A model generated the notes under the pieces. That model was not told where the DNA came from. It saw nothing but the letters and a program-made list of their open reading frames with translations, and did not search any database. From Verrucomicrobiota bacterium (GTDB lineage Bacteria; Verrucomicrobiota; Verrucomicrobiia; Limisphaerales; VHCN01), in contig VHCN01000001.1 of assembly GCA_016871675.1 (NCBI GenBank), forward strand, positions 130,268-185,619: a DNA stretch of 55,352 nucleotides, read 5' to 3'. The translations under genes and the position numbers were made by a program. Shown piece by piece: positions 14,275 through 29,612 of this stretch (position 1 is its first letter; each line of letters starts with the position of its first letter).

Positions 14275-15855
14275 CTACGCCTTGTTCAGCGCCTTCAGGT
14301 GGGTGATGCGGAAGCGTGCGCCGCGGGGTTCGTTGGCGAGGCATTCGATGCTCCAGCCGTGCGCGGACACGATCTGCTGCACGACGGCGAGGCCGAGGCC
14401 GGTGCCTTCCTTGTGCGAGGTGAAGTAGGGCTTGAAGATTTCGGCGCGGTTCTGCAGGGGGACGCCGGGGCCGTTGTCGACCACTTCGAGCCACGCGCCG
14501 CCGTTTTCACGGCCCACCAACACCTCGATTCGTCCGCCGGCGTCCGCAGCCTGAATGGCGTTGAGCAGGAGGTTGAAGAGCGCCTGACGCAGAAGTTGTT
14601 CGTCGGCCTCGATGACAATCGAGTCGTCGGGGACAGCGAGATCGATGCGTTTCTCGTCGGTGTCGATGGAGAGGGCGCGCGCGACCTCGGCGGCGACGTG
14701 ACCGACCGCGACCGGCGAGCGGCGGATGTCGCGCGGGCGCGAGTAGTTGATGAATTCGTTGAGCTGCGCGGTGACGCGGTCCGCCTCGTCCACGATGGCG
14801 CGCGAGCGGTCGCGGATGTCGGCGGGCGCGGCGGGTTCCTTGGAAATGAGCTGCGCCATGCCGCGGATGAGGTTGAGCGGGTTGCGCGTCTCGTGCGCGA
14901 GGCCGGCGGCGGCGAGGTTGAGTTCCTTGAGGTGTGCGTTCATCTCGCTGGCTTTCACGAGGCGGATTTGAAGCTCGGAGGATTTTACAAGGTTGCGCCA
15001 GCCGAAGGCCATGGCCGACGCGGCCACGGTGGCCAGCACGGCGACGAGCAAACGCAGCACAACGTCCCGACGGCCGGATTCGATCACGCTCGCGGTGGAC
15101 ATCACGATGAGGAAGCTGTGAACGCCCTGCTTGGTGATGAGCAACTGGAATTCGTCCGGGTTCATCCAGTTGGGCCGCACGAACGGGCCGCGGGGCGGGC
15201 GCGGGCCGCGCAAACCGGCGGCGGTGTTGGTGGAACCGGTGGCGTCATTCGTCCCGGCGGGGGGCGGTTGCGTGAACACCACGGGGTTTTCGGTCGCGCC
15301 GGTCGGGACTTCGGTCTGGTCCGCCGGCGGCGGGCGGTCACGGGGCGGGCGGCTGCCGGCTGGCGGGCGGTTGGTCTCGAACGTGAGGAAGATTTCCTCG
15401 CGTGGCATGATGATCGGCGGCGGCGGCGGGCGCGGGGGGGTGATGTCGGACTCGTTGGTGAGGTTGGCGCCGAGGTCCACGAGGTTCATCAGCGTGACCG
15501 TCTGTTCGGTCCAGACTTCGCCGGGACGGAACACGCTCGCGGGCTTGAATTCGATGCGCTCGCCGGCGGTGGCGACGACCTCGCCGGAGGCGCTGAGCAG
15601 TGCGATTGAGTTGACCTCGTTGGTGCGGATGAGCGCGGAGAGCGCGGACTCCATGCGCTCGCGAGAGACGATGCCGCCGAAGCGCCGCTGCGAGCGGACG
15701 ACGATGCCGAGGGTGGAAGTGATGTCGCGCCCGCGGTGGCGCAAGAGCTCGCGGGCGGCCTCGTTTACGCGCCGGTGCTCGGCGGCCTGCCACGCGAGCA
15801 CCACCGCCCATGCGACGGTCAGCGTGAGGTAAACGAGGAGGCTTCGCCGGCTCAC
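14275..15855 (-). CDS. membrane sensor histidine kinase at the end of the type II secretion operon
   Basis: A 526-residue kinase with an N-terminal membrane segment (about residues 5-22), a long extracytoplasmic region rich in Pro (PPRPPPPPIIM and following), a second membrane segment near 265-287, and a DHp domain LNLAAAGLAHETRNPLNLIRGMAQL with His at residue 321. ATPase motifs DNGPGVP and GTGLGLAVVQQI are intact. It starts 24 bp after the stop of the secretin gene and is therefore probably co-transcribed with the secretion genes. The domain set is NtrY/ZraS-like. Its partner regulator is not in the window. Confidence 0.87.
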   Translation of the reverse strand: MSRRSLLVYLTLTVAWAVVLAWQAAEHRRVNEAARELLRHRGRDITSTLGIVVRSQRRFGGIVSRERMESALSALIRTNEVNSIALLSASGEVVATAGERIEFKPASVFRPGEVWTEQTVTLMNLVDLGANLTNESDITPPRPPPPPIIMPREEIFLTFETNRPPAGSRPPRDRPPPADQTEVPTGATENPVVFTQPPPAGTNDATGSTNTAAGLRGPRPPRGPFVRPNWMNPDEFQLLITKQGVHSFLIVMSTASVIESGRRDVVLRLLVAVLATVAASAMAFGWRNLVKSSELQIRLVKASEMNAHLKELNLAAAGLAHETRNPLNLIRGMAQLISKEPAAPADIRDRSRAIVDEADRVTAQLNEFINYSRPRDIRRSPVAVGHVAAEVARALSIDTDEKRIDLAVPDDSIVIEADEQLLRQALFNLLLNAIQAADAGGRIEVLVGRENGGAWLEVVDNGPGVPLQNRAEIFKPYFTSHKEGTGLGLAVVQQIVSAHGWSIECLANEPRGARFRITHLKALNKA

Positions 15856-15879: not shown

Positions 15880-17235
15880 TTATTTGCGCGGCGGAAGCGA
15901 CGGCGAGACCGTCGCGGGTTTGCGCGCGGGTGGTTCGGGCGCGCCGGCAACGGGCGCGGCGGCGGCACCGGGTTGCGTGGCGGACTGGGGCTTCGCGCCG
16001 TTCGCGGGTGGCTTGGCGCCGTTCGCGGGTGGCTTCGCGCCGTTGGCCGGCGGCTTGGCGCTATTCGGGGGCGCGGTCGTGTCCACGTCGAACGCGCGGT
16101 TGAGTTCCTGTTCGCTGAAAGCCTTGCGCGGCATCTCAAGTTTGTTGGCCTCGCGCGCACTGGCCTCGATGAGGTCGCCCGGCTTGTGGATGACCTCGGG
16201 CGTGAGGAAAATGATGAGCTCGGTCTTCACGTCCTTTTTCTCGGTGCGCTTGAAAGCCGCGCCGAGGAGCGGGATGTCGCCGAGGAGCGGCACTTTCGTC
16301 TTGGTTTCGCGCTTGTCGGTCTTGATGAGCCCGCCAATGACGACGGTCTTGCCGCTCTCGGTCACGACGACGGTGTCCGCGGAAATCTTGTCGATGGCGT
16401 TGACGGTGAGGTTGGTGGAGATGGCGACGGTCTGCGCGCCGACCTTGGAGATTTCCGGCGCGACGATCATCTCGACGAGTCCCTCGGAGCTGATGAACGG
16501 GGTGACGCGCAGGATGATGCCGATGTCCTGATATTGCACGGTGTTGATCTGGCCGCCGTTCTGGTCGAAGCGCGTGTTGGTGATGAACGGATAGGACTGG
16601 CCCACGACGATGTTGGCCTGCTGGTTGTTGCGGGCGAGGATGGTCGGGCGCGAGAGCACCTCGGTCTTTGCAAGCTGGCTCAGCGCGTTGATGGTCAGTT
16701 CCACGTTTGCGCCGACGGGCAGGATCTTGTAGAAGAGGCCGCGGTCGGTCCCCGTGCCGCCGGGCACGCCGAGCAGGCTGAAGATTTCCCCGCCCTGTTT
16801 GTTGTTCACGTCGTGCTTGAGCTTGCCCTGCACGCCGAGGTTGAAGTCGTCGGTGTAGGTCACCTCGACGAACACGACGCGGATGAGCACCTGCGGCTTG
16901 GGCCGGTCGAGGTTTTGGATCACGGTCTTGAGGTGCTCGTTGGTTTCGTCGTCGGTGATGACAATGATCTGGCGCGTCTCGGGATCGATCGTGATGAGCG
17001 CCTCGCCGACGCGGGTGTTGCTCGGGTAGGTGCCGGTGTTCGCGCGCCCGCCGCCGCCCCCAAAGCCGCCGCCCCCAAGGCCGCCGCCGCCAAAGCCGCC
17101 AAAGCCGCCAAAGCCGCCAAAGCCGCCGCCGCCCGGGCGCTGCTGTGCCGGTGCGTTCATGGGGGTGAGTGCGATTGCCGAGAGGAGCGCGACTGCCATC
17201 GCGCAACGGTTGGTCCAGGACTGTTTTTTGTTCAT
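15880..17235 (-). CDS. gspD: type II secretion secretin, C-terminal (pore-forming) half of a split GspD
   Basis: A 451-residue protein with a signal peptide (ends near ALTPMNAPAQQ), then a Gly-Phe repeat GFGGFGGFGG at about residues 37-60. One N-type domain follows (ITIDPETRQIIVITDD to QNLDRP), then the full secretin domain QVLIRVVFVEVTYTDDFNLGVQ through GLIKTDKRETKTKVPLLGDIPLLGAAFKRTEKK. The GspD N0-N2 domains are missing from this protein and are found in the adjacent gene. The C-terminal tail has about 3.5 copies of AKPPANG. It would form the outer-membrane ring, together with the product of the upstream gene. Confidence 0.87.
   Translation of the reverse strand: MNKKQSWTNRCAMAVALLSAIALTPMNAPAQQRPGGGGFGGFGGFGGFGGGGLGGGGFGGGGGRANTGTYPSNTRVGEALITIDPETRQIIVITDDETNEHLKTVIQNLDRPKPQVLIRVVFVEVTYTDDFNLGVQGKLKHDVNNKQGGEIFSLLGVPGGTGTDRGLFYKILPVGANVELTINALSQLAKTEVLSRPTILARNNQQANIVVGQSYPFITNTRFDQNGGQINTVQYQDIGIILRVTPFISSEGLVEMIVAPEISKVGAQTVAISTNLTVNAIDKISADTVVVTESGKTVVIGGLIKTDKRETKTKVPLLGDIPLLGAAFKRTEKKDVKTELIIFLTPEVIHKPGDLIEASAREANKLEMPRKAFSEQELNRAFDVDTTAPPNSAKPPANGAKPPANGAKPPANGAKPQSATQPGAAAAPVAGAPEPPARKPATVSPSLPPRK
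16003..16065. repeat. tandem AKPPANG-coding repeat in the secretin tail
   Basis: About three 21-bp units (reading GCGCCGTTCGCGGGTGGCTT with small variation) encode consecutive AKPPANG heptapeptides near the C-terminus of the secretin-half protein. It is probably a flexible periplasmic or surface linker. Confidence 0.7.
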
Positions 17236-17279
17236 GGTGTGAATCTTTCGTGCCCGAGGGTTGGCGGAAGTGATACGGC

Positions 17280-19007
17280 TTACCGGAAGCCGCCGGATCC
17301 ACCGAAGCCGCTGCCGCCGCCGAAGCCGCCGCCGCCGCCGCCAAAGCCGCTTTGGGTGCCGCCTGTGCCGCGACTCTGTGAGTTGTTGTTCTGCCGGTTG
17401 GCAAGCGCGTCGGTCGTGCGCTGGCTGTTTTGCGACGACCGCGTGTTCTGGCCTTCGAACAGGCCGCGCAGCACGTTTTGCACGGTGTTTACGTCCGCGT
17501 TCTCGAGCGAATAGGTGAAGACCTTCTGCTTGCGCGCCGGGCTCGAATCGAGCTGTAACACCATGTCGGCGATCTGATCCATCATGTCCTTGGCCGCGGT
17601 CACAATGACGGACGAGGTGCGCGCGTCGGGCACGGCGAGGACGCGCTGCTGCTTGCGCGCGCGTTCGCTGTCGCCGGTGGCCGTCGTTCCCGTGCGCCCG
17701 CCTGTCGAACCGCCGGGACCGCCGCGGCCGAAGATGCCGCCCGGACCTCCGCCAAACGCGCCGCCGAATTGCAGGCCGCGGCTCCGGTCGCTGTTGCCGG
17801 AGCGCGTCGGGTCGGGGAAGAGCGACGCGAGGAGCGACGCCATCTCCGTGGGGTCGGAGTTCTTGAGGTGGAACACGCGCAGCTCGGTCACGTCCTGCGT
17901 GGCGGTGTCGAGTTGCTTGATGAGATCCTCGATGGTGACCATGAGGTGCTCGGGCGCGTTGATGATGACGGCGTTGCTCTGCTCGTCGGCGACGGCCACA
18001 ACGCGGGCGTTGGAAACCGGACCTCCGCCGGTGCGTCCGCCGGTGCGTCCGCCGAATCCGCCCGTGCCGCTGCTGCCGAATCCGCCTAAGCTCCCTCCGC
18101 CGAGTCCGCCGAGTCCGCCGAATCCGCCGAATCCGCCGAATCCGCCGAATCCACTGCTGCTGCGACCGCCGCCCGGGCTACCCTGGCCGAAGCCACCTTG
18201 TTGAGTGCCCGTGGCGGGTGTGAACAGGTCCTTGATGATCGTCGCCAGGGCCTTCGCGTCTCCGTATCGGAGTGCGAAGACCTTGATGCCCGTGGTGCCG
18301 GTTTGCGAGAGGTCGAGGGCCTGCACAAGTTCGGTGAGGCGCCGGATGTTGCGCTTGGTGTCGGTGATGACGATGGAATTGGCGCCGTCGTTCGCGGTCA
18401 CGGTCTGGTTGCCCGGGAGAATGGGCGCGAGGTCGGAGAGGATTTGACGCGCGCCCACGAACTTGAGCGGGATGACCTGCGTGACGATCTCGTCGGTTTT
18501 GACCATGTCCTTCGGGTCGCTGCCGGTGACGATGGGGATGTCGTCGAACTTCGCGTCTTCGAGCCGCTTCACGGTGAGCGTCTTGCCGTTCACGATGGCG
18601 GCGTAGTTGTTCTTCCGGAGGACCTGGTTGAGCAGGTCGAGCGCCTCGCTCTTGGTGACGGGGTGGTTGCTCCACACGTCCACCGTGCCACGCACCTGGG
18701 TCTCGAGCACGATGGTGAAGCCGGCGGCCTCGCTCAAGTAAGTGAGCACCTGGTCGATGCCGACGCCGCGGAAGTTGAGGCGCAGGTTGGCCTCCTCGCC
18801 GGTCTTCGGGTCCACGGTCTTGGTGGTGGCGCGCGGCGCGAAGGGATTCTTGGAATCCTTCCCCGCAGGCGGCGTGGTCGCGGGTGGCGTGGTCGCGGGT
18901 GGCGGCGTCGTGGGCGTGGCGGGTGGCGTCTGGTTCTGCGCGGCGACGCGGCTGGCGAGCGCGAGGGCGAGCCCGAGCGTGGCGAGTGTGGTTCGTGAGG
19001 CGTTCAT
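17280..19007 (-). CDS. gspD: type II secretion secretin, N-domain half of a split GspD
   Basis: A 575-residue exported protein with signal peptide, Pro/Thr-rich linker, then an N0-like domain (LRLNFRGVGIDQVLTYLSEAAGFTIVLE), and three or so N1-N3-like ring domains (IPLKFVGARQILSDLAPILPG; VFALRYGDAKALATIIKDLF; VFHLKNSDPTEMASLLASLF; FTYSLENADVNTVQNVLRGLF). These are separated by Gly/Phe/Ser-rich linkers. There is no secretin pore domain; the protein ends in GGGFGGGSGFGGSGGF. It overlaps the GspC-like gene by 4 bp (ATGA) and is 44 bp upstream of the secretin-domain gene. It would supply the periplasmic rings of the outer-membrane channel. Confidence 0.85.
   Translation of the reverse strand: MNASRTTLATLGLALALASRVAAQNQTPPATPTTPPPATTPPATTPPAGKDSKNPFAPRATTKTVDPKTGEEANLRLNFRGVGIDQVLTYLSEAAGFTIVLETQVRGTVDVWSNHPVTKSEALDLLNQVLRKNNYAAIVNGKTLTVKRLEDAKFDDIPIVTGSDPKDMVKTDEIVTQVIPLKFVGARQILSDLAPILPGNQTVTANDGANSIVITDTKRNIRRLTELVQALDLSQTGTTGIKVFALRYGDAKALATIIKDLFTPATGTQQGGFGQGSPGGGRSSSGFGGFGGFGGFGGLGGLGGGSLGGFGSSGTGGFGGRTGGRTGGGPVSNARVVAVADEQSNAVIINAPEHLMVTIEDLIKQLDTATQDVTELRVFHLKNSDPTEMASLLASLFPDPTRSGNSDRSRGLQFGGAFGGGPGGIFGRGGPGGSTGGRTGTTATGDSERARKQQRVLAVPDARTSSVIVTAAKDMMDQIADMVLQLDSSPARKQKVFTYSLENADVNTVQNVLRGLFEGQNTRSSQNSQRTTDALANRQNNNSQSRGTGGTQSGFGGGGGGFGGGSGFGGSGGFR
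18085..18160. repeat. Gly-Phe-rich coding repeat (GFGGFGGFGG)
   Basis: Short 9-bp units (consensus CCGCCGAAT) repeat several times and encode GFGGFGGFGGFGGLGGLGG in the N-domain GspD protein. A similar repeat is at about 17085-17135 in the secretin-domain protein. Both are low-complexity and prone to slippage. Confidence 0.7.
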
Positions 19008-20179
19008 TGTTTGTTCTCCTGTTGGCGGCGCTCCATGAGGCGCTTCAAAATCTCACTTTCGTTGGCGGGCGGCGTGGTGCTCGCGGGCGGGGGCGGCGAG
19101 GAGGGTGACTGGGACGGACCGGGGCCGCCGCCGCCGAAAGTGCTGTTTCCGCTCGAGCCACCGCCATATCGTGCGGTGTAGTAGGCGGTGTATTCCGCGG
19201 CGTCGACGAATCCGTTGCCGTCCTTGTCGATCTCGCGGAAGCGGTCGCGCAGTCCGCGGTCGGCCTCCTGCTGCGAAACCCTGCCGTCGCCGTCGCGGTC
19301 CTGCTCGCGGATGCGCCGTTGCGCGGAGTCGGCGGCGCTGTTGCTCCCGCTGCTGCTCCCGAAACTACCCCCGCCAAACCGGCTGCGGTCGAAGCCGCCG
19401 CCCTGCATGCGGGCTTCCATCATGCGGCGGATCAAGTCGATGTCGCCGCTGCTGCCGAACGAGGAACTTCCGAAGGACGAGGATCCCGACGACAAATACG
19501 GGCTGCGATATGGTTCCTCGGGCACGGGCCGGAGGCTGGCGAGCCACGCGCCTTCATCCTCGCGGCGGAGTTGGTAGCCGACCTTGAGTTCCACTTCCTT
19601 CTCGTCTTTGAGCAGTTTGACCTGGTCCGTCGCGATGGCGGTAAGCTTGTGCCCTGCGATGACGTCGCCGGGCTTGGCGGTCTTGCGATACGCGGAATTC
19701 TCGCTCTCAAAGAACGCGAAGTCTCCCTTCTCGTAGCTCATCGTGCCGACGAGCGCGAAGCTCTCGACCTTGGGCGAGCGGCGGACGGGTTGCTCGGTCT
19801 GTTGCGGGCGGCCATTGCGGTTGGGGTTGAAGATGTTCTTGTCGGCAATCGGGCGGAACGCGGCGAAGCCCTCGGCGGGGGACGCGGAACCGGACTTCGA
19901 CGGCGACGAACCGGACTTGCCGGAGCCGGACTTCGAGTCAACGGGCGGATTCCTCGAGCCGCGCGAGCGAGAGTCGCGCCCAGAGCCTGACCTCGGGTCG
20001 GTGGACTTCGGGTCGGTGGTCGCCGTGCCCGGCGTTGAGGTTGTCGTCGGAGCCGTGGCGGGCGGGGCCGTGGGCGTCGTTGCCGCCGGGGCCGTGGGCG
20101 GGGCGGCGGGTGTCTTGGCGTCCTGCGCGGCGGCGAGGCTCGCGGTGAACGCCGCAAGAATGAGCGGGAAAGTCTTCAT
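19004..20179 (-). CDS. GspC-like type II secretion adaptor with a pair of EF-hands
   Basis: A 391-residue exported protein. A signal peptide and long Pro/Thr/Ser linker lead into FRPIADKNIFNPNRNGRP, the kind of motif seen in GspC/PilP-type proteins, followed by a small beta domain (VESFALVGTMSYEKGDFAFFESENSAYRKTAKPGDVIAGHKL). Two EF-hand calcium loops follow: DRDGDGRVSQQE and DKDGNGFVDAAE. Ser/Gly-rich linkers surround them. In known systems GspC links the inner-membrane platform to the secretin. The EF-hands are not a normal part of GspC. The gene overlaps the downstream GspD N-domain gene by 4 bp. The GspC assignment is inferred from short motifs and operon position. Confidence 0.7.
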   Translation of the reverse strand: MKTFPLILAAFTASLAAAQDAKTPAAPPTAPAATTPTAPPATAPTTTSTPGTATTDPKSTDPRSGSGRDSRSRGSRNPPVDSKSGSGKSGSSPSKSGSASPAEGFAAFRPIADKNIFNPNRNGRPQQTEQPVRRSPKVESFALVGTMSYEKGDFAFFESENSAYRKTAKPGDVIAGHKLTAIATDQVKLLKDEKEVELKVGYQLRREDEGAWLASLRPVPEEPYRSPYLSSGSSSFGSSSFGSSGDIDLIRRMMEARMQGGGFDRSRFGGGSFGSSSGSNSAADSAQRRIREQDRDGDGRVSQQEADRGLRDRFREIDKDGNGFVDAAEYTAYYTARYGGGSSGNSTFGGGGPGPSQSPSSPPPPASTTPPANESEILKRLMERRQQENKQ

Positions 20180-20229: not shown

Positions 20230-20775
20230 TCATTTGGCTTCCAGTGGCGAGAGGCGCAGCCCGCTGACAAGCAGGCCGAGCGCGAGTTGAGAGCCGGAGG
20301 TGTCGCGGGTGCTGAGTTCGACGGCCTCGATCTTGAGCGCCATGGGGTCCTGTTCGAGCTCGTAGAGGAACCGGCTGAGCGACGAGAGGCTGCCCGAGGC
20401 GTCCACGCGGCATTCGAGGAGTGAATGGTCGTCGGTCGCGCCGCGCTTCCACTGCGGCTTGACGGAGCTGACGCTGATTCGCGCCTCGCGGGACCATTTG
20501 TCGAAGGCGCTCAACAGTTGCTGCTCGGCGGCGGAACGGTCCTTGGGAAGCGTGCCCTTGCGCATGGTGTTCCAGCGGTCGCGCATGGCGCGGTCGCGGT
20601 CGAGCAGGGCGGAGCCGGCGCGGACGTCCTTCTCGAGTTTCGCGATGCGGGCCTGCCGGGCCTTCCACGACGCGGTGAGCGGCTGGACGACGAGCTTGTC
20701 GCCCGCGAAGAGCGCGACCACGCTGATGGCGAGGAGCGCGAGGAGATGCTGGCGTTTCTGGGCTTCAGTTTTCAT
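20230..20775 (-). CDS. gspM: GspM/PilO-like inner-membrane protein
   Basis: A 181-residue protein with one N-terminal membrane helix (LLALLAISVVALFAGDKLVV), a coiled-coil stretch (ASWKARQARIAKLEKDVRAGSALLDRD) and a ferredoxin-like alpha/beta domain. This is the GspM/PilO plan: an inner-membrane platform protein pairing with GspL. Sequence similarity in this family is weak, so the assignment rests on architecture and on its position right after the GspL-like gene, which it overlaps by 11 bp. Confidence 0.7.
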   Translation of the reverse strand: MKTEAQKRQHLLALLAISVVALFAGDKLVVQPLTASWKARQARIAKLEKDVRAGSALLDRDRAMRDRWNTMRKGTLPKDRSAAEQQLLSAFDKWSREARISVSSVKPQWKRGATDDHSLLECRVDASGSLSSLSRFLYELEQDPMALKIEAVELSTRDTSGSQLALGLLVSGLRLSPLEAK

Positions 20776-22207
20776 TTCGCCTGGGGGTTCCCCAGTTGAA
20801 GCGGAATGTGAACTGCATCGCGGGCGCCTTGCCCTTCATGGAGTCCACCTTGATGTCGGAGACGTTGCCCACGGCGCGCAGCCGGTCCAGCGCCTTGAGC
20901 AGCGACGGGCTGTCGCGCATCGTGCCGGAGCAGGACACGCTGGCGAGGTTGCGTATCTCGAAGCTCTTCGCCGCGACCGAGCCGTCCTCGGGGAAGGACT
21001 CGGTGACGCGCTGGAGCACGCTCAGGCTCGTGTGCGACTCGTCGAACCACGGGCGATACTTGCGAACCTGCTTCTGGATGTCCTCCAGTTCGCTGACGGG
21101 TTTCTTCATCGCGCTCCACTGGCCGTTGAGGCCGTTGAGGCGGAATTGCTGCCAGCCGAATAGCCCGATGACCGACGCCGCGACCAGACCCGCGGCCACG
21201 CCCGCCCACGCGAGCTTGCCGGAGGAATAGCGCTCGGAGAACTGCTTCCACAGGCTCGGCTTCGGCGGCAGGAACTCGAACGGCTTGCGCCCGGAAAGAT
21301 ACTGCGCCGCCAGCGCGAGCGCGCACGAGACGGGCGTGTTGTCCGGCACCTTGAGCCCGCCGGCCTCGCTGCCGAAGTTCGGCACGTGCTCGGTGAGCAG
21401 CCCCATCGAGGCGGCGCGCGGCCGCAGTTCGATCATCAACTGCTCGGCGAACCGGCTCGCGCCGAAAATCTTGAACTCGCGCACGCCGCCGCGCACCTCG
21501 GGGGGCATCTGCCCGAGCGTGATCCGCAGGTCGCGCGCGACGTGCTCGGACTGCAGCCGGCGGTCGCCGCCCTCGGTGTCGAACGCGCCCTCGATCGAGC
21601 GCAGCGCGACCACGCCGCCGCCGCTGGTCACCAGCAAATCCACCGCTGACTCGCCGACGACGGCAGCGATCTGCCCGTTCGGGCGGGCCGCAAGGACGCC
21701 GGGCAGCGCGGTGAGGCCGGGGGAGAATCCGTGCGGTTTGAGCCCTGCGGCCTCGAGCACTTCATCCAGCCTCGCGAGGTGCTCCCGCGTGACGGCCAGT
21801 TGCGTCGCGAAGCGCGCCCCCGACGGCGCGGCGTATCGCGACACGCACACCCGCAAGTCCTCCATCCCGTTTGGAAAGCCGCGCTCGGCCTCGATCTCGA
21901 GGAAGCCCGGCACATCCTCCTCGGGCATCTCCGGAATCCCGGCGTGAACCGACAGCACCCACGCGGTGGGCACGCAGGCGACGCAGCGTTTCTCGCGGAT
22001 GCCCGCGGCGTCGAGCGCGTCGCGCAGTTCCTTGCCGACGAGTTCGACCTCGTCTTTGAACAGGTCGAGCGCGAGCGTCGCGGTCGCGGTCTTTTGGATC
22101 GTGACCGAGCCGTTGGTCCGGCGCAGCACGACGGCCTCGAGCCGGCTGCCGTCGAGCGCGAGGGCAAGCAGCGTGGTGGGGGTCTTGTCCTTGGAGAGCA
22201 TGGTCAT
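20765..22207 (-). CDS. gspL: GspL-like protein: PilM-type actin-fold domain plus PilN-type membrane domain
   Basis: A 480-residue protein. Residues 1 to about 330 have an actin-like PilM/GspL fold (LLALALDGSRLEAVVLRR, CVACVPTAWVLSVHAGIPEMPEEDVPGFLEIEAERGFP). A membrane helix lies near 350-375 (LAWAGVAAGLVAASVIGLFGW), then a coiled coil and a PilN-like ferredoxin fold. This is the GspL plan that recruits the GspE ATPase. The start ATG at 22205-22207 overlaps the gspK stop (ATGA). The frame continues upstream to 22540 but only as a shadow of gspK. Confidence 0.8.
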   Translation of the reverse strand: MTMLSKDKTPTTLLALALDGSRLEAVVLRRTNGSVTIQKTATATLALDLFKDEVELVGKELRDALDAAGIREKRCVACVPTAWVLSVHAGIPEMPEEDVPGFLEIEAERGFPNGMEDLRVCVSRYAAPSGARFATQLAVTREHLARLDEVLEAAGLKPHGFSPGLTALPGVLAARPNGQIAAVVGESAVDLLVTSGGGVVALRSIEGAFDTEGGDRRLQSEHVARDLRITLGQMPPEVRGGVREFKIFGASRFAEQLMIELRPRAASMGLLTEHVPNFGSEAGGLKVPDNTPVSCALALAAQYLSGRKPFEFLPPKPSLWKQFSERYSSGKLAWAGVAAGLVAASVIGLFGWQQFRLNGLNGQWSAMKKPVSELEDIQKQVRKYRPWFDESHTSLSVLQRVTESFPEDGSVAAKSFEIRNLASVSCSGTMRDSPSLLKALDRLRAVGNVSDIKVDSMKGKAPAMQFTFRFNWGTPRRNEN

Positions 22208-23586
22208 CGGAGTTCCTTTGCGAGGCGCGCCTGCTCGCGGATGGCCGGGCCGAGGGCCCAGCCGAAGTGCGTGAGGTCCTGGCGGTGGACGATCCGCGGC
22301 GTGCCGGAGCTGGTGTCGAAGATGAACTTTACGCGCTGGTAGCCTCGGGCGTGATGGCCGAGCGCCACGATGTCCGCGCTGAACTGGTAGCTTTGCGCGG
22401 TGAGGAACGGCCCGGCGCGGACGGCGTCCTCGCGCTCGAGGACCTCGGACACCCACGCGATGGAGTCGAGCCGCGAGGGGTTGGCCTGGCGGAAGCTCAC
22501 CAGCGAGCCCGCGTTGTCCGCGCCGATGCCGGGGATGCACTTGAGCACGGCCTCGCTGGCGGTGTTCACGTTGACGCGCCCTTCGATGGATGTGGCGTTG
22601 GTCGTGGTGAGGTCCGAGTGGATTTGCGCAAACTCATCGGCGGTCATCTGGCTCACGAGGTAGAACTCCAGCAGGCTGCCAAAGTTGGCGCCGGGCCCGC
22701 TGATGCGCGGCATGATTTCTTGCGCGCGGGTTTCGCCGAACTTCTCGTTCAAGAGTCCCTGCAATCGCGCGCCGCCCCCTTGCTGCTGGCCGCCCTGGGT
22801 GGGATTGACGTTGATGCGCTGCGAGCCGTCGCTGCGGGTGTTGGGCTCGCGGCTGTGGACGGTCACGTATTCGAGCACGCCCAGGTCGAGCACGCCGTTG
22901 CGGTCGTCGCCGGGCAGCGAGTTGTCGCCGTCGTTCTCGTTCGGGTCGAGCACGCCGTTCATGTTCACGTCCTCGCCGTAAAGGATCGCCAGCGTCGCGC
23001 CGTAAACGAGGCGCAGTTCCTCGATGGACTCGAAGCGCCCGTTCTTGCAGCGATACGCGGGATTGAGGCGGCCGTAGATTTCGTCCTCGGCGCCGCCCTC
23101 GGTCACGGTGCTGTCCTCGTCGCGCCAGTCCACGGTGGCCGCCGAGAACTCCGCGGTGGTCTTCGGCAGCGCCTGCAGCATCTCGAGCGTGGCCGTGTTG
23201 AGGTTGAGCTTGGACGCCTCGTCCACAAGCCCGAAGACCGGCCGGTCGGGCGAAACCTGGTCGTCCCCGCGGCCGAGTATCCAAAAGGTCGCGTCGCCGA
23301 TGGGAACGGCCTCCGATTCGTAGCTCTGCGGATCCGGCCGGAAGCCGTTCGTCTCCTGGTTGGCGAGGATGTAGTTCACGTAGCGCGCCGCGCCCGCGAT
23401 GGCCTGCCCCGCCTCGACGGTGGCGGTGCGGTTGTCGGCGGCGCGCAACTCGAGCGTGCTCGACTGTGCGAAGTAGAGCGCAAGCGTCACGAGCCCGAAC
23501 GCGATCCACAGCACGATCACGAGCACGGACGCGCGCTCGGCGCGGTGCGTCCGGGTCGGGGCCGGGTTGACAGCGCGCAGCTTCAT
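22204..23586 (-). CDS. gspK: type II secretion minor pseudopilin GspK
   Basis: A 460-residue protein with an N-terminal membrane helix (RASVLVIVLWIAFGLVTLALYF) and the large GspK domain. The block DEASKLNLNTATLEMLQALP and a second copy VNVNTASEAVLKCIPGIGADNAGSLVSFR are helix-hairpin-helix type GspK signatures. An insertion of DxN/DxD-rich sequence (EDVNMNGVLDPNENDGDN) may bind calcium. The N-terminal cleavage site lacks the usual Gly and Glu5, as is common in GspK. It overlaps gspJ by 4 bp and gspL by 4 bp. Confidence 0.88.
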   Translation of the reverse strand: MKLRAVNPAPTRTHRAERASVLVIVLWIAFGLVTLALYFAQSSTLELRAADNRTATVEAGQAIAGAARYVNYILANQETNGFRPDPQSYESEAVPIGDATFWILGRGDDQVSPDRPVFGLVDEASKLNLNTATLEMLQALPKTTAEFSAATVDWRDEDSTVTEGGAEDEIYGRLNPAYRCKNGRFESIEELRLVYGATLAILYGEDVNMNGVLDPNENDGDNSLPGDDRNGVLDLGVLEYVTVHSREPNTRSDGSQRINVNPTQGGQQQGGGARLQGLLNEKFGETRAQEIMPRISGPGANFGSLLEFYLVSQMTADEFAQIHSDLTTTNATSIEGRVNVNTASEAVLKCIPGIGADNAGSLVSFRQANPSRLDSIAWVSEVLEREDAVRAGPFLTAQSYQFSADIVALGHHARGYQRVKFIFDTSSGTPRIVHRQDLTHFGWALGPAIREQARLAKELR

Positions 23587-24308
23587 TGGCCGGCCTCCGC
23601 GGACGCGGTGGCATTGGTCGTTCCCTGCACGAGGATCGGCACCACGATTTCAATCGGCGCGCGCGCCGGGGAATCGGCGGACTCGCGGACGCGTTCAAGG
23701 ATCATCTTGACGCCCGCGGGCAGCGGCGGGCTGGCGACGGTCGAGTCCCACACGTCGGTCCACGCCGTGCCGTCGAAGAACTCGAAGTGGAAGTTCTCGA
23801 TGCCGGCCATGAGGAATTGCGGCTCTTCCTCGGCGACGTTGATCGGCAGCAGATTCCGCGTGAGCACGCGCACGAGGTCCTTGCCGGCGGCGTTGTTCGT
23901 CGGGAGCACGAGCACGTAGGAAACGCGCTGGATTTCGGACCACGGGGAGTTGTTGTCCACCATGCCGGTGGTCGTGGTGAAGGTGACGGACGCCACGCCG
24001 GCGATCAAAAGGACGTTGGTCGAGGCGCCGGTGGTGCCGGGCGTCGCGAGCGGTCCGAGGAGTTGATTGGTGCCGGGCACCACGATGCCCTCGAGGTCGC
24101 GCTTGATGATCGCGACGGCCTGGTGCACGGGCACGGCCTGCTCGATGGCCGCGGTGGTCTTGTTGCGCAGGCGCACTGCGCTGAAGAACACCGTGCCGAT
24201 GGACGCAAGCACGATGGAGAACACCGCCACGGCGAGCAGCAGTTCCATGAGCGTGAACGCGGCGCCGGGGCGCGCGTGTGGCTGGATGAGTTGGCGCGCC
24301 GTCCTCAT
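23583..24308 (-). CDS. gspJ: type II secretion minor pseudopilin GspJ
   Basis: A 241-residue protein starting at the ATG overlapping the gspI stop (ATGA). The type IV pilin-like N-terminus is AAFTLMELLLAVAVFSIVLAS with Glu5 present but Ala, not Gly, before the cleavage point. The rest is a beta-rich domain of the size expected for GspJ, ending near EIVVPILVQGT. Downstream it overlaps gspK by 4 bp. Upstream in-frame sequence to 24464 is a shadow. Confidence 0.8.
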   Translation of the reverse strand: MRTARQLIQPHARPGAAFTLMELLLAVAVFSIVLASIGTVFFSAVRLRNKTTAAIEQAVPVHQAVAIIKRDLEGIVVPGTNQLLGPLATPGTTGASTNVLLIAGVASVTFTTTTGMVDNNSPWSEIQRVSYVLVLPTNNAAGKDLVRVLTRNLLPINVAEEEPQFLMAGIENFHFEFFDGTAWTDVWDSTVASPPLPAGVKMILERVRESADSPARAPIEIVVPILVQGTTNATASAEAGQ

Positions 24309-24715
24309 GGCTGGCTGGTGCCTCCCGGGGTGACGGTGAGCGCCGGGTCCTCGGCGATCGTGCTCAGCTTGACGGAATATTCCTGGCCCTGCACCGGGAA
24401 CTTGACCTCCACGGTCACGAGCAGCAGCGCCTCCACCTCCCAACCCTCGGAGCTGAGCGTCCACTCAAACTCGAACGGGCCGTCCTGCACCGTGCCGCCG
24501 CGGCCGGACTCGTTGAACTGCCCGGTGACCAGCGCCTCGTTGAGCATCTGCTCGGCGATGCGGATGGCAACGGTCTTGCGCTCGCCGACGGCGCCCGCGC
24601 GCGCGGCCACCCGCACGCCCTCGACGGCAACGGGGATGACGATGGCCATGAAGAGCAGCGCCGCGAGGACTTCCGCGAGAGTGAAGCCCGCCTGCGAGCG
24701 CCGGCGACCACGCAT
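24305..24715 (-). CDS. gspI: type II secretion minor pseudopilin GspI
   Basis: A 136-residue protein starting MRGRRRSQAGFTLAEVLAAL, with a normal prepilin peptidase site (G|FTLAE) and hydrophobic helix. The remaining domain has the size of GspI. The start ATG at 24713-24715 lies at the edge of a repeat-rich spacer (24716-24809); upstream in-frame ATGs fall inside the repeat and are less likely. It overlaps gspJ by 4 bp. Confidence 0.8.
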   Translation of the reverse strand: MRGRRRSQAGFTLAEVLAALLFMAIVIPVAVEGVRVAARAGAVGERKTVAIRIAEQMLNEALVTGQFNESGRGGTVQDGPFEFEWTLSSEGWEVEALLLVTVEVKFPVQGQEYSVKLSTIAEDPALTVTPGGTSQP

Positions 24716-24809
24716 GCACGCGGATGCACGCGGATGAGACGCGGCCATGTGCGGCCCGCCTGCCAATCCGTGTTCGTGTCCCTTCGTGTTCATTCGTGGT
24801 TTTCCCCGG
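24716..24809. repeat. repeat-rich spacer between gspH and gspI
   Basis: Contains GGATGCACGC units repeated twice (24713-24735) and, at 24768-24801, a stretch reading on the minus strand as ACCACGAATGAACACGAAG and then GGACACGAACACGG. This has the look of a dispersed short repeat common in GC-rich environmental genomes. It is the only sizeable gap in the pseudopilin operon, and it is where the start of gspI becomes ambiguous. Confidence 0.6.
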
Positions 24810-25415
24810 TCATCTCGCGCCCTGCGGCAGGCCGTTGGTGGAGATTTCGTATTGCAGTTTCGTGCGGCTCTGCACGATGGCGACTTTGCTGCCCTCGTTG
24901 GCCGGGTTGCTCTCCGCATCGCCTTCCTTGAGGACGACCCAGTCGGGGCTGCTCGGCGTGATGAAGCCGTCGGTCTGGAACCGGATGATCGGGAGGTTTT
25001 GGTAGCTGCCGAGCTTGGCGCGCTGGGCCATGCCCACACCCTGGTTCGCGCCCTCGGGCACCTGGATGGAGAGCGTCTTTGCCAGCGCGTATTCCACGGC
25101 CTTCTCGTCCGCGCGCTCGTCGTAGCCGGGCTCCATTTCAAGGCCGTATTTGCCCTCCTGCGCGTCCACCCACAACAGCATCGGCACGCCCTCGGTCACT
25201 GCGCGGCTTTGCGCGTAACGCGTGAGCGTGAGGAACCGCCGCGCCTCCGAATCCAGCGCGCGGCCCTTGAAGAAATTCGAGAGCGACGGCGACGCGAGCG
25301 CCGCGACGATGGACAGCAGGGCCATCACGAGGATCAACTCGATCATCGTGAACGCGCGGAGCGCCTCGCGTTGCGGGCGGGACTCCAGCCGGGACGTTGT
25401 CGGGCTCGGGCTCAT
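24810..25415 (-). CDS. gspH: type II secretion minor pseudopilin GspH
   Basis: A 201-residue protein with pilin-like N-terminus LRAFTMIELILVMALLSIVAALASP; the residue before Phe is Ala rather than Gly, while Glu5 is conserved. The following helix KGRALDSEARRFLTLTRYAQSRAVTEGVPMLLWVD matches the GspH family. It lies between gspG (27 bp upstream) and the repeat-rich spacer before gspI. Confidence 0.82.
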   Translation of the reverse strand: MSPSPTTSRLESRPQREALRAFTMIELILVMALLSIVAALASPSLSNFFKGRALDSEARRFLTLTRYAQSRAVTEGVPMLLWVDAQEGKYGLEMEPGYDERADEKAVEYALAKTLSIQVPEGANQGVGMAQRAKLGSYQNLPIIRFQTDGFITPSSPDWVVLKEGDAESNPANEGSKVAIVQSRTKLQYEISTNGLPQGAR

Positions 25416-25442
25416 CGGTGTTTCGCGTCGGGCTCGCGCCGG

Positions 25443-25922
25443 CTACGGCCGCCGCGCGTTGCCCGTGCTCCAGTTGGTGATGTCGTCATCGCCGCCGTCG
25501 CGTCCGTCGGGGCCGGTGGACATGATGTCGTAGGAGGTCTGGTTGTAGCGGCCCGGGCACTCGTAGATGTAGGGGTTGCCCCACGGGTCGATCGGGATTT
25601 CGCCCTTGAGATACGGGCCCTTCCAGCTCGTCGCATCGCGCGGCGCGGACACGAGGTCCTGCAGGCCGTCCTTGCCCTTCGGGTAGTAGCCGTTGTCCAC
25701 CTCGAAGGCGTCGAGCGCGGTGCCGAACGTGGCGATCTGCGTCTGCGCGGCGGTGATGCGCGCCTGCTCGGTGCGGCCGGAGAACTTCGGCACGACGATC
25801 GCCGCGAGCACGCCGAGGATGACGAGCACAAGCAGCAGTTCGATGAGCGTGAAGCCGCGCGAGGCGCGGCGGCGGGTTTCGAGGTTCGGGTTTCGAGCCG
25901 GGCGTGCGATGCGGGTTTTCAT
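25443..25922 (-). CDS. gspG: type II secretion major pseudopilin GspG
   Basis: A 159-residue major pseudopilin. The prepilin peptidase site is SRGFTLIELLLVLVILGVLAAIVVPK. The conserved C-terminal part LKGEIPIDPWGNPYIYECPG and PDGRDGGDDDITNW is the calcium-binding region typical of GspG. The start is the ATG at 25920-25922; the longer frame upstream overlaps gspF in another frame. It follows gspF after 20 bp. Confidence 0.93.
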   Translation of the reverse strand: MKTRIARPARNPNLETRRRASRGFTLIELLLVLVILGVLAAIVVPKFSGRTEQARITAAQTQIATFGTALDAFEVDNGYYPKGKDGLQDLVSAPRDATSWKGPYLKGEIPIDPWGNPYIYECPGRYNQTSYDIMSTGPDGRDGGDDDITNWSTGNARRP

Positions 25923-25942
25923 GTTGGATGGGTTGTGGAGAG

Positions 25943-27253
25943 TTACTTGATGTGGTCCTGCAAGCTGAAGATCGGGATGACCATGCCGATGAAGATGGTC
26001 CCGATGAATCCGGCGATGAAGAAGAGCATGAGCGGCTCGGCCAGCGCCACGGCGGCCTTGAGTTCGCGGTCCAGATCGCCCTCGGTCACGTTGGCGATGC
26101 GCACCAGCTCGGCGTCGAGCTTGCCGCTCTCCTCGGCGACGGAAATCATCTCGATGGTCGAGCCGGAAAAAAGCGTGCGGCAATCGCCGAGGCTCGGCCC
26201 GAGCGGCTTGCCTTCCTTCACGCGGTCGATGGAGTTGGACACGGCGTCCACGAGGATCTGGTTGCCGATGGAGCGGCGGGCGACGTTCAAGCCGTTGATG
26301 AGCGGCACGCCCGCGCCGAGCAGCGTGCCGAGCATCCGGCAGAAGCGCGACATGGCAAACTCCGCCACGAGCGGTCCCACAAGCGGCGCGCGGAGGATGA
26401 AGCCCTCCCACACGCGCCGGCCAGCCTCGGAGGCGAACCAGTTCCTCACTATGAAGCCGCCGATCGCCAGGCCCAGCAGCGCGAGCAGCCCGTAGCTGCG
26501 CATGAAATCGCTCGTCGAGACGATGAGTTGCGTGAGCGCCGGCAGCTTCGCGCCGAACCCGGCGAACACGAGCTGGAAGCGCGGAATGAAGAACACGAGC
26601 AGGAACACCACCACCGCCATCGCGAGGCAGAACAGGATGATCGGGTAGAGCAGCGCGGTCATCACCTTGCCCTTCATTTCCTTTTCGCGCGCCTGGAAGT
26701 CCGCGATCTGCGCGAGCACCACGTCGAGAAACCCGCCCGTCTCGCCCGCCTCGACCATCGCCACATACACGCGCGGGAAAACCTCCGGCGACTTGGCCAT
26801 CGCGTCGGCGAGCGTCATGCCGTCCACCACCAGGTCGTGCACTTCCTTCCACTTCGCCTTCGCGGTCGGGCTCGGCGCTTCCTTTTGAAGAATCACGAGC
26901 GCGCGGCTGAGCGGGACGCCGGCGGCCAGCAGGTTGGAAAGCAGGCGGGTGAAGTTCTCGAGCTCGCGCGCGGAGATGCGGTTCCCGCCGAGGTCGAGGC
27001 TGGGCGCGGCGGGGGATTCGGGCTGCGCGGCATCGTTTTTTGAGGCGGTCGCGCGGGCCGGCGGGCGTTCGTCGCGCTTCGAGTTCGACTTCGAGGAACC
27101 GTTCGCGCCGTTGCGCTCGGCGAGCTTGATGGGCCGCAGGCCGAGGCTTTCCATCTGTTTGAAGGCGTCCGAGCGCCCGCCGGCTTCGAGCTCGCCGACG
27201 GCGATCTTGCCGTCGGTCTTGAGCGCTTTGTAGGCGAAGGTCGGCATGGGCAT
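25943..27253 (-). CDS. gspF: type II secretion inner-membrane platform protein GspF
   Basis: A 436-residue polytopic membrane protein, MPMPTFAYKALKTDGK at the start and two GspF/PilC domains (about 95-215 and 300-420) with AGVPLSRAL, VYVAMVEAGETGG and the second copy GAGVPLINGL, MISVAEESGKLD. Three hydrophobic segments are at the expected places. A charged 45-residue linker (NGANGSSKSNSKRDERPP and on) between the N-terminal part and the first domain makes it longer than usual. The ATG overlaps the gspE stop by one base. Confidence 0.93.
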   Translation of the reverse strand: MPMPTFAYKALKTDGKIAVGELEAGGRSDAFKQMESLGLRPIKLAERNGANGSSKSNSKRDERPPARATASKNDAAQPESPAAPSLDLGGNRISARELENFTRLLSNLLAAGVPLSRALVILQKEAPSPTAKAKWKEVHDLVVDGMTLADAMAKSPEVFPRVYVAMVEAGETGGFLDVVLAQIADFQAREKEMKGKVMTALLYPIILFCLAMAVVVFLLVFFIPRFQLVFAGFGAKLPALTQLIVSTSDFMRSYGLLALLGLAIGGFIVRNWFASEAGRRVWEGFILRAPLVGPLVAEFAMSRFCRMLGTLLGAGVPLINGLNVARRSIGNQILVDAVSNSIDRVKEGKPLGPSLGDCRTLFSGSTIEMISVAEESGKLDAELVRIANVTEGDLDRELKAAVALAEPLMLFFIAGFIGTIFIGMVIPIFSLQDHIK

Positions 27254-29025
27254 CAGTGGCGCGCCACGGCGATGCTCGCCAGGCTCGCGGTGTCTTCACC
27301 GTCGCTTTTGCTGTCCATTGTCGTGCGCGAGACTTCCTTGGCGGTCGTCACGCTCAGCACTTCCTCGACGGTGGTCACGCCCGCGCGCACGAGCCGCCAG
27401 CCGTCCTGCGCGAGCGTGCGCATGCCGTCGCGCAGTGCCGCGTCGCGAATCTGGTCGGTCGAGGCGCTGGCGAGGATGAGCTGCCGGATTTCGTTGCTCG
27501 AATCCATCCACTCGAAGATCGCGCGGCGGCCGTGGAACCCGGTGTTGCGGCACTCGCGGCAACCGACGGATTTGAAGATGGTGATGTCGGCCGGGATGCC
27601 GACCTTGGCCTTGAACGCGGCGGCGGTCGGCGAGGCGTCGGGCTGCGTGCAGTGTTTGCACAGCACCCGGACGAGGCGTTGCGCGAGCACGGCTTCGAGC
27701 GACGAGGCGACGAGATACGGCTCGACGCCCATGTCCACGAGCCGTGTGCACGCGCCGGGCGCGTCGTTCGTGTGCAGCGTGGAGAAGACGAGGTGACCGG
27801 TCAGCGACGCCTGCACCGCAATCTGCGCGGTCTCGGCATCTCGGATTTCGCCGATGAGCACGACATCCGGGTCGTGGCGGAGGATGGAGCGCAGCCCGCG
27901 CGCGAAGGTGAGGCCGGACTTTTCGTTGACCTGAATCTGGTTGATGCCCTTGAGCTGATACTCGATCGGGTCCTCGATGGTGATGATCTTGCGCTCCAGG
28001 TCGTTGATCTCATTGAGCGCGGTGTAAAGCGTGGAGGTCTTGCCGCTGCCCGTCGGGCCGGTCACGAGGATGATGCCGTGCGGCATCTGCAGGACGTGGT
28101 TGAAGCACTTGAGCTCGCGCAGATCGAGCCCGAGATCCTTCATTCCGCGCAACGTGGAGTTCTGGCGAAGGAGACGCATGACGACCGCCTCGCCGTGCAA
28201 CATCGGAATGACGCTGACGCGGATGTCGATCTCGGCGTCGTCGAGGCGAATCTTGATGCGGCCGTCCTGCGGGAGACGCTTCTCGGCGATGTTGAGGTGG
28301 GCGAGAATCTTGACGCGCGAAACGATCGCGGGCTGGAAGCGCTTGATCTGCGGCGGCACCGGGACTTCCTGCAACACGCCGTCAATGCGGTAGCGGATGC
28401 GCAACTCGTCCTCGAACGGTTCGAGGTGGATGTCCGACGCGCGCAGTTCCACCGCGTCGCGGAGGAACTGGTTGACGAAGCGGATGATCGAGGCGTCTTC
28501 GGCGGCGGAATCGAGGTCGGTGTCGTCGTGGACGTCCTCGACGACTTGCAAACCGGATTCCTCGGCAAGCGTGCCGAGCGTGTCGGCGCCGACGCCGAGG
28601 CGTTTCTTCATCTCGCGCTGGATGATTTCGCTTGGCGCGAGAACGGGCTTGAGCTTGAGGCCGGTGACGGTCTTGAGGGCGTCGAGCCCCTGCGTGGCAA
28701 AGAGGCGGCTCGTGGCCACCTCGACGGAGCCATTCGTGCGGCGGAGCGGGAGGATTTCCTCCTTCAACAGCAGCCGCGCGGGGAACAGGGAGAGGACCTG
28801 CTTGTCGGGCTCGATGTCTTCGAGCGAGGTGAATGCGACGCCGTATTCTTTCGCGAGCCAGCGCAGGACGGCTTCCTCGGAAACCGAGGAGCCGCCTGCG
28901 CCGGACTTTGCGAAGTTGAGGGCGTCCGATGCGGAAAGCTGCCGGGCGGCGATCATCCGCTCCAGCAACTCCTGGGACTGGGCGTCCGGAATCGGGATGG
29001 GGCTCATGAGTGATGCACTGGCCAT
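27253..29025 (-). CDS. gspE: type II secretion ATPase GspE
   Basis: A 590-residue ATPase powering pseudopilus assembly. The N-terminal N1E-like region is followed by the ATPase core with Walker A GPTGSGKTST, Asp box ITIEDPIEYQL, Walker B DVVLIGEIRDAETA and the His box TGHLVFSTLHTNDAPG. The zinc-binding cysteines CKHC and CREC are present. Two starts are possible: ATG at 29023-29025 (chosen, 15 bp after the upstream gene) and ATG at 29005-29007. No clear ribosome-binding site distinguishes them. It overlaps gspF by one base. Confidence 0.93.
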   Translation of the reverse strand: MASASLMSPIPIPDAQSQELLERMIAARQLSASDALNFAKSGAGGSSVSEEAVLRWLAKEYGVAFTSLEDIEPDKQVLSLFPARLLLKEEILPLRRTNGSVEVATSRLFATQGLDALKTVTGLKLKPVLAPSEIIQREMKKRLGVGADTLGTLAEESGLQVVEDVHDDTDLDSAAEDASIIRFVNQFLRDAVELRASDIHLEPFEDELRIRYRIDGVLQEVPVPPQIKRFQPAIVSRVKILAHLNIAEKRLPQDGRIKIRLDDAEIDIRVSVIPMLHGEAVVMRLLRQNSTLRGMKDLGLDLRELKCFNHVLQMPHGIILVTGPTGSGKTSTLYTALNEINDLERKIITIEDPIEYQLKGINQIQVNEKSGLTFARGLRSILRHDPDVVLIGEIRDAETAQIAVQASLTGHLVFSTLHTNDAPGACTRLVDMGVEPYLVASSLEAVLAQRLVRVLCKHCTQPDASPTAAAFKAKVGIPADITIFKSVGCRECRNTGFHGRRAIFEWMDSSNEIRQLILASASTDQIRDAALRDGMRTLAQDGWRLVRAGVTTVEEVLSVTTAKEVSRTTMDSKSDGEDTASLASIAVARH

Positions 29026-29039
29026 CCGCGAACGCGCGT

Positions 29040-29612
29040 TCAGCGAACCAGCCCGAACAGGTAAGCCTGCGCCTCCTGCCGGTCGGTCAACACGGCCTTC
29101 AAATCGTCCTGGGCCTTCTCGACCTTGGCGTCGGCGGACTTGCGCGCGTCGCGAACCTTCGCGAGCATGGACTTGAGTTCCGCGGAGGGAGCCTTCTCCT
29201 CGACGGCCTTGCGGAGCGCCTCGATGTCGGGATTCGGCGTGAAACCAAACGGGTTGGTGCCGCCGCCCTGCGGGCGACCGCCGCCCCCCTTGTCGCCACC
29301 GCCGCCCGGACCGCGGCCGCCGAAGCCACTCATCGCGAGGCCACCTAAGCCACCGATCGCGAATGCGCGGGCTTCGCGCTGCGCTTCCGACACCTTTTCG
29401 ATGCGGGCGGCGAGGACCTTCCATTCGTCGTCGTTCTTCACGTCGAACGCTTCGCGCATGCGTTCCATCGCGCGGGCGCGGAACTCCTCGGCGCGGGCGC
29501 GGAACTCCTCGATGTTGAAATTGCCCTTGCCTTGGGCGCTGGCAGTGGGTGCGCCGGCGGATAACGCGACGAGCGCGCCGGCGAACACGATGGTCTTGGC
29601 GATCGGATACAT
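29040..29612 (-). CDS. small exported protein upstream of gspE, function unknown
   Basis: A 190-residue protein with a signal peptide (TIVFAGALVALSAGAPTASAQ), a long charged amphipathic helix (FNIEEFRARAEEFRARAMERMREAFDVKNDDEWKV), a Gly-rich middle (GGRGPGGGGDKGGGGRP) and a second helix ending in a KAQDDLKAVLTDRQEAQAYLFGLVR stretch. It is the apparent first gene of the secretion operon. Its gap to gspE is 14 bp. Similar small alpha-helical exported proteins occur next to such operons in related genomes as I recall, but no function is established. Confidence 0.65.
   Translation of the reverse strand: MYPIAKTIVFAGALVALSAGAPTASAQGKGNFNIEEFRARAEEFRARAMERMREAFDVKNDDEWKVLAARIEKVSEAQREARAFAIGGLGGLAMSGFGGRGPGGGGDKGGGGRPQGGGTNPFGFTPNPDIEALRKAVEEKAPSAELKSMLAKVRDARKSADAKVEKAQDDLKAVLTDRQEAQAYLFGLVR

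What the first reader, a model, noticed from the sequence alone, without database searches (positions are those of the whole stretch)
15880..19007. GspD secretin is split into two proteins: an N-domain protein and a secretin-domain protein
The 575-residue protein has an N0-like domain and several N-type ring domains but no pore domain. The next gene has the pore domain with one N-type domain. Both have their own signal peptides, and both carry a Gly-Phe-rich repeat (GFGGFGG) at the end facing the partner, which may replace the lost peptide bond as an association zone. GspD is normally a single chain.
Basis: partly seen in the sequence, partly recalled or inferred. Interest (0 to 1): 0.75.

Follow-up and report, generated by a model that had tools for sequence, protein, structure and literature searches.

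The report
Two-chain GspD secretin, split mid-domain

Summary
Two adjacent genes at the end of a complete type II secretion operon encode complementary halves of GspD (NCBIfam GspD model 1-300 and 301-596). Each protein starts with a Sec-type signal peptide. The cut does not fall between domains. It falls inside the last N ring domain, between its first helix and second strand, so each chain carries half a domain.

This is neither a frameshift nor an assembly error. All 37 readable relatives, each from a different family of the order, and 78 of 79 readable named loci have the same cut. These span Verrucomicrobiota, Kiritimatiellota, Omnitrophota, Hydrogenedentota and Sumerlaeota. Reading frames between the genes are random, and the second chain always has its own signal peptide. 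The split clade is monophyletic (100/99); its sister is a single-chain Lentisphaeria GspD.

Six loci, at least four events, are cut again at the same place in the N2 domain, giving three exported chains.

Half-domain complementation is the best mechanism, inferred from models and not shown by experiment.

Split secretins are known from rhizobial T3SS and mitochondrial T2SS. This is a new variant.

The parts
17280..19007 (-). gspD N part (575 aa, P0001): signal peptide 1-23, linker, N0 (75-150), N1 (176-236), N2 (241-369 with Gly-rich loop 265-332), N3 (375-490 with Gly-rich loop 403-447), first half of the last N domain (494-519), conserved L..R tail, Gly-rich end
   Evidence: ORF; Pfam N0 and Secretin_N on slices; GspD model 1-300/600; AlphaFold model
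15880..17235 (-). gspD C part (451 aa, P0002): own signal peptide 1-31, Gly-rich head, second half of the last N domain (about 76-112), secretin pore domain (184-349), Pro/Ala-rich tail
   Evidence: ORF; Pfam Secretin 6.6e-46 and Secretin_N 35-69; GspD model 301-596/600; PDB GspD matches
17236..17279 (.). 44-nt gap between the two genes, frame offset 2, no shared frame
   Evidence: gaps of 3-155 nt in relatives except one lineage with 805-809 nt
19004..20179 (-). gspC-like gene overlapping the start of the gspD N part by 4 nt (ATGA); carries an EF-hand pair
20230..29424 (-). rest of the type II secretion operon upstream: gspM (20230-20775), gspL-like with PilM match (within 20765-22540), gspK (22204-23586), gspJ, gspI, gspH, gspG (within 25443-25900), gspF (25943-27253), gspE (within 27253-29424)
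   Evidence: NCBIfam matches; GspG 139 bits against cut-off 88.85
14275..15855 (-). sensor histidine kinase directly downstream of the gspD C part; conserved neighbour in relatives

Best explanation
This is a two-chain GspD secretin of a complete type II secretion system. Both chains are exported by Sec. The C chain forms the outer-membrane pore ring and carries the strand-strand-helix half of the ring domain next to the pore. The N chain carries the N0, N1, N2 and N3 rings and ends with the strand-helix half of that same domain. The two halves assemble in trans into one complete N domain in each of the (presumably 15) subunits, which joins the periplasmic rings, and through N0 the GspC platform, to the pore. 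The cut lies in the long low-complexity loop that N domains of these proteins commonly carry, so it removes only a flexible loop. It arose once at the base of a clade in Verrucomicrobiota and neighbouring phyla. The same kind of cut was repeated later in the N2 domain of several lineages, giving three-chain secretins. Shown here by sequence: gene structure, half-domain content, conservation, monophyly and repetition. Inferred: export, trans assembly, 1:1 stoichiometry, ring number and function.
For: Complementary halves of GspD: TIGR02517 1-300 and 301-596, Secretin_N 1-26 and 35-69. Same cut in 37/37 families of the order and 78/79 named loci, always N gene then C gene, each C part with its own start and hydrophobic signal peptide. 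Frame offsets are random: 12/13/12 (counted) and 31/24/23. One lineage carries 805-809 nt between the genes and keeps both intact. Bimodal scores in 188 class and 388 phylum genomes: hits above 400 bits have short frames, apart from out-of-frame extensions. Synteny H-I-J-K-L-M-C-D1-D2-kinase. Split clade 100/99.3 with a single-chain Lentisphaeria GspD as sister. Six loci with a second cut in the N2 loop, where the middle piece has its own signal peptide. Half-domains are nearly as conserved as intact N domains (0.47 and 0.53 against 0.54-0.60 pairwise identity) and ungapped. In a read-through model of a relative, with both chains in one frame and the signal peptide as linker, strand and helix of half 1 (416-438, pLDDT 81-89) and half 2 (540-569, about 90) align together with the intact N3-plus-pore of solved secretins from residue 415 to 823-855: pIV 4.5 A over 215, EPEC GspD 6.4 A over 259, PilQ 5.0 A over 237. 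In the window N chain alone that strand is not formed (pLDDT 54-75).
Against: No experiment exists. No true two-chain complex prediction could be run: the read-through model ties the chains in one polypeptide, which favours contact, and the comparison with the lone N chain uses a different species and alignment. Global pTM is low (0.39), so only local domain structure is usable. Ring stoichiometry and expression of both proteins are untested. The larger quick tree put the single-chain Lentisphaeria protein inside the split clade, which would mean re-fusion rather than a sister.
Confidence: 0.8

Rival explanations
1. The C chain is a self-sufficient short secretin (like phage pIV or Tad secretins) and the N chain is a separate periplasmic adaptor that links it to GspC, without sharing a domain, as proposed for rhizobial RhcC1.
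For: Short secretins with few N domains exist; RhcC1 is thought to act as a linker between SctD and RhcC2 (PMC3459982). Both chains have their own signal peptides.
Against: Each chain ends in a conserved half of one and the same domain; the half in the lone N chain loses its strand in the model; both halves belong to one GspD family and are complementary, unlike RhcC1/RhcC2 of different origin.
Confidence: 0.12
2. The split is a sequencing or assembly artefact, a programmed frameshift or stop read-through, and the cell makes one chain.
For: In 12 of 37 relatives the two genes share a frame, most of these with a single stop between them, so read-through is formally possible there.
Against: Frame offsets are uniform; every C part has its own start and signal peptide, which would sit as a hydrophobic segment in the middle of a fused periplasmic protein; one lineage has 805-809 nt between the genes.
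Confidence: 0.02
3. The true GspD of this organism is another secretin (the 756-aa single chain on contig 107 or the 3950-aa giant), and the split pair is an accessory or decaying copy.
For: The genome holds three other secretins; the 756-aa protein scores 341.7 against the GspD cut-off of 351 and the giant far above it.
Against: The split pair sits in an operon with GspC and the pseudopilins, in conserved order; the 756-aa protein lies in another operon with its own ATPase. Both halves are strongly conserved.
Confidence: 0.06

Closest known systems
Canonical GspD (PulD, XcpQ, EpsD)
   Same: N0 and Secretin_N rings, secretin pore, place beside gspC in a gsp operon, sequence match to TIGR02517 and to solved GspD chains
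   Different: Two exported chains instead of one; cut inside the last N domain; one extra N domain in the window and most relatives (N0 plus four instead of three); no single chain reaches the GspD cut-off
Rhizobial T3SS secretin RhcC1/RhcC2 (PMC3459982)
   Same: Secretin encoded by two genes, N-terminal part and pore part
   Different: There the two genes have different origins (T3SS-like and Tad-like, partial replacement); here both are halves of one GspD, adjacent, and sharing one domain
Mitochondrial T2SS GspD plus GspDN1-3 of jakobids and heteroloboseans (PMC8134430)
   Same: GspD split into several polypeptides, including proteins that match only the first or only the second half of an N domain
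   Different: Eukaryotic, mitochondrial system that lacks N0 and GspC; here bacterial, in one operon, with N0 and GspC kept and a Sec signal peptide on each piece
Phage pIV and T4P/T3SS secretins with few N domains
   Same: Pore plus adjacent N domain fold; the read-through model aligns with them across the cut
   Different: Single chain with the adjacent N domain intact

Membership tests
Type II secretion secretin GspD | Secretin pore domain (PF00263) | tested here: met
   C part 6.6e-46, 156 bits over cut-off 27.5
Type II secretion secretin GspD | N0 domain that binds GspC (PF21305) | tested here: met
   N part 50.7-54.6 bits over cut-off 27; binding itself not tested
Type II secretion secretin GspD | Array of Secretin_N (N1-N3) domains | tested here: met
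   Three complete plus one split between the two chains
Type II secretion secretin GspD | Genes of gspC and other T2SS parts alongside | tested here: met
   E-F-G-H-I-J-K-L-M-C in one operon; GspC itself is recognised only weakly by models but by position and synteny
Type II secretion secretin GspD | One polypeptide passing the TIGR02517 cut-off (351.35 bits) | tested here: not met
   213.0 and 217.2 bits for the two chains, complementary model ranges
Type II secretion secretin GspD | Pentadecameric ring in the outer membrane | not testable with these tools
   needs purification or cryo-EM
RhcC1/RhcC2-type split secretin (partial replacement) | The two chains derive from different secretin families | tested here: not met
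   Both match GspD best, in complementary ranges; the C-part tree places them as one clade with a single-chain GspD as sister
Mitochondrial GspD/GspDN system | Separate polypeptides holding half N domains | tested here: met
   Secretin_N 1-26 in the N chain, 35-69 in the C chain; feature described in PMC8134430
Mitochondrial GspD/GspDN system | N0 domain and GspC absent | tested here: not met
   N0 present; a GspC-like gene present by position and synteny

The most novel reading that the evidence does not exclude
In this clade the secretin's N rings are truly modular. Ring domains are rebuilt from half-domains in trans, so the secretin is a hetero-oligomer of two or three chains whose periplasmic part can assemble after, or detach from, the pore, giving a regulated joint that single-chain secretins lack. 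It would be the bacterial counterpart of the fragmented mitochondrial GspD.
Probability: 0.3. Interest if true: 0.75.

Novelty: new variant of a known kind. Interest (0 to 1): 0.6.

Why it matters
GspD is treated as a single-chain 15-mer in structural models. A lineage-wide two-chain form, with repeated further cuts at the same point of the fold, shows which bond in an N ring can be lost. It gives a natural split-domain system for testing how secretin rings assemble and where they tolerate breaks, and offers a bacterial parallel to the fragmented mitochondrial GspD. Annotation rules that need one full-length GspD (for example the NCBIfam equivalog cut-off, which neither half reaches) would miss these systems.

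Tried and rejected
Frameshift, read-through or assembly error: rejected by uniform frame offsets, universal second signal peptides and conservation across families. Gly-Phe repeat as the association zone: rejected as a general mechanism (both ends in 10 of 101 pairs). Fusion in relatives suggested by long open frames (G006, G040, G032, G003, G044): these were out-of-frame extensions; all five are split. Literature searches found no description of a split GspD in Verrucomicrobiota in the open-access library; absence there is weak evidence.

Full report
OBSERVATION. Both ORFs are present as described on the minus strand: 19007-17280 (575 aa, P0001) and 17235-15880 (451 aa, P0002), 44 nt apart and in different frames. 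They end a complete type II secretion operon E-F-G-H-I-J-K-L-M-C-D1-D2. GspG passes its curated cut-off, and GspE, F, H, I, J, K and M are matched below theirs; the GspL-like gene matches only a PilM model. A sensor kinase follows.

WHERE THE CUT IS. The NCBIfam GspD model is covered by P0001 from 1 to 300 and by P0002 from 301 to 596 of 600, and neither chain reaches the cut-off on its own. Domain slices show N0, three complete Secretin_N domains and then Secretin_N positions 1-26 at the end of P0001; P0002 starts, after its signal peptide and a Gly-rich head, with positions 35-69. The break therefore lies inside the last N domain, between first helix and second strand. The window protein has one N domain more than canonical GspD. 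Several relatives (L066, L069, L070, L071 and probably L063) lack the N2 domain and so have the canonical number.

IT IS REAL. In 38 families of the same order the orthologue was fetched, and in all 37 readable cases GspD is split at the same place, N gene before C gene. Every C part has its own start and a hydrophobic signal peptide; gaps are 7-153 nt except for one family with 805 nt of apparently non-coding sequence. Frame offsets are 12/13/12 (counted). A scan of named genomes gave 80 loci: 78 split, one unreadable, one single chain (L184, Lentisphaeria). The split loci are mostly Verrucomicrobiota, with Kiritimatiellota (L155), Omnitrophota (L125, L136), Hydrogenedentota (L154) and Sumerlaeota/BRC1 (L161, L165, L167, L169, L170). 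The two sets overlap; together they hold 101 distinct pairs. Scans of 188 class and 388 phylum genomes give a clean gap between the split type (over 400 bits, short frames) and all other secretins (under 275 bits).

ORIGIN. A careful tree of the C parts puts all split proteins in one clade (100/99.6 under LG+G4, 100/99.3 under LG+C20) with the single-chain L184, which has N0-N1-N2-N3-pore, as its sister. A quick 80-row tree had L184 inside the clade with lower support, so re-fusion is not fully excluded.

SECOND CUTS. Six loci (L037, L043, L048, L137, L161, L165) have the N part cut again inside N2, at the same fold position and in the same Gly-rich loop, and each middle protein has its own signal peptide. 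L043 and L137 are sisters, and L161 and L165 are sisters, so at least four events are needed. Repeated cutting at equivalent points is strong evidence that half N domains can work in trans.

MECHANISM. The half-domains are ungapped and conserved at 0.47 and 0.53 pairwise identity, close to intact N domains (0.54-0.60), while loops and ends are less conserved. GFGG-type repeats occur on both facing ends in only 10 of 101 distinct pairs, and such repeats also fill the loops of the intact N2 and N3 domains. They are therefore loop remnants rather than a conserved association zone. A relative whose two genes share a frame (L057, G020) was modelled as a read-through chain, with the stop read as Gly and 32 paired rows. 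Half 1 (416-438) and half 2 (540-569) are both confident and, with the pore, align over solved N3-plus-pore chains starting at residue 415. In the window N chain alone the corresponding strand is not formed and confidence drops to 54-75. This fits complementation in trans, with the caveat that the read-through model ties the chains together and the two models are of different species.

COMPARISON. Rhizobial T3SS secretins RhcC1/RhcC2 are split but of two origins (PMC3459982). Mitochondrial GspD is broken into GspD and GspDN1-3, two of which are half N domains (PMC8134430). The present case is, as far as the searched literature shows, an undescribed bacterial T2SS version that keeps N0 and a GspC-like partner.

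OTHER SECRETINS IN THE GENOME. Three others exist: a 756-aa single chain with its own ATPase operon, a 535-aa one and a 3950-aa giant. No gspC was seen beside the 756-aa or the giant gene; the 535-aa gene's neighbours were not annotated. By position the split pair is the T2SS secretin, but a genetic test is missing.

Noticed in passing
L073:5007-16856 (- strand; genome contig C5, outside the window): A single 3950-aa secretin with signal peptide, N0-like start, 34 significant (about 43 with weak ones) tandem Secretin_N domains and a C-terminal pore domain; giant frames of about 2900-5350 aa with the same pore occur in many relatives of the order. A stack of that many rings would be longer than a normal periplasm. 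A PilM-like gene lies just upstream.
   Followed up: partly
window 19004-20179: The GspC-like protein carries an EF-hand pair (PF00036, 2.7e-8). By a simple pattern only 1 of 34 GspC orthologues in the order also has EF-hand loops (G026), so this looks like a lineage-specific addition.
   Followed up: partly
L037, L043, L048, L137, L161, L165: GspD in three separately exported chains, the second cut lying in the N2 Gly-rich loop.
   Followed up: yes
L064 (G036) and L135, between the two gspD genes: About 805 nt of apparently non-coding sequence with inverted GGGGCATC-type repeats, possibly a small mobile element, separates the two gspD genes without disrupting either.
   Followed up: partly
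L185 (genome contig C107): A second, T2SS/T4P-like operon with GspE/PilB-type ATPase, GspL- and GspM-like genes and a 756-aa single-chain secretin just below the GspD cut-off.
   Followed up: partly
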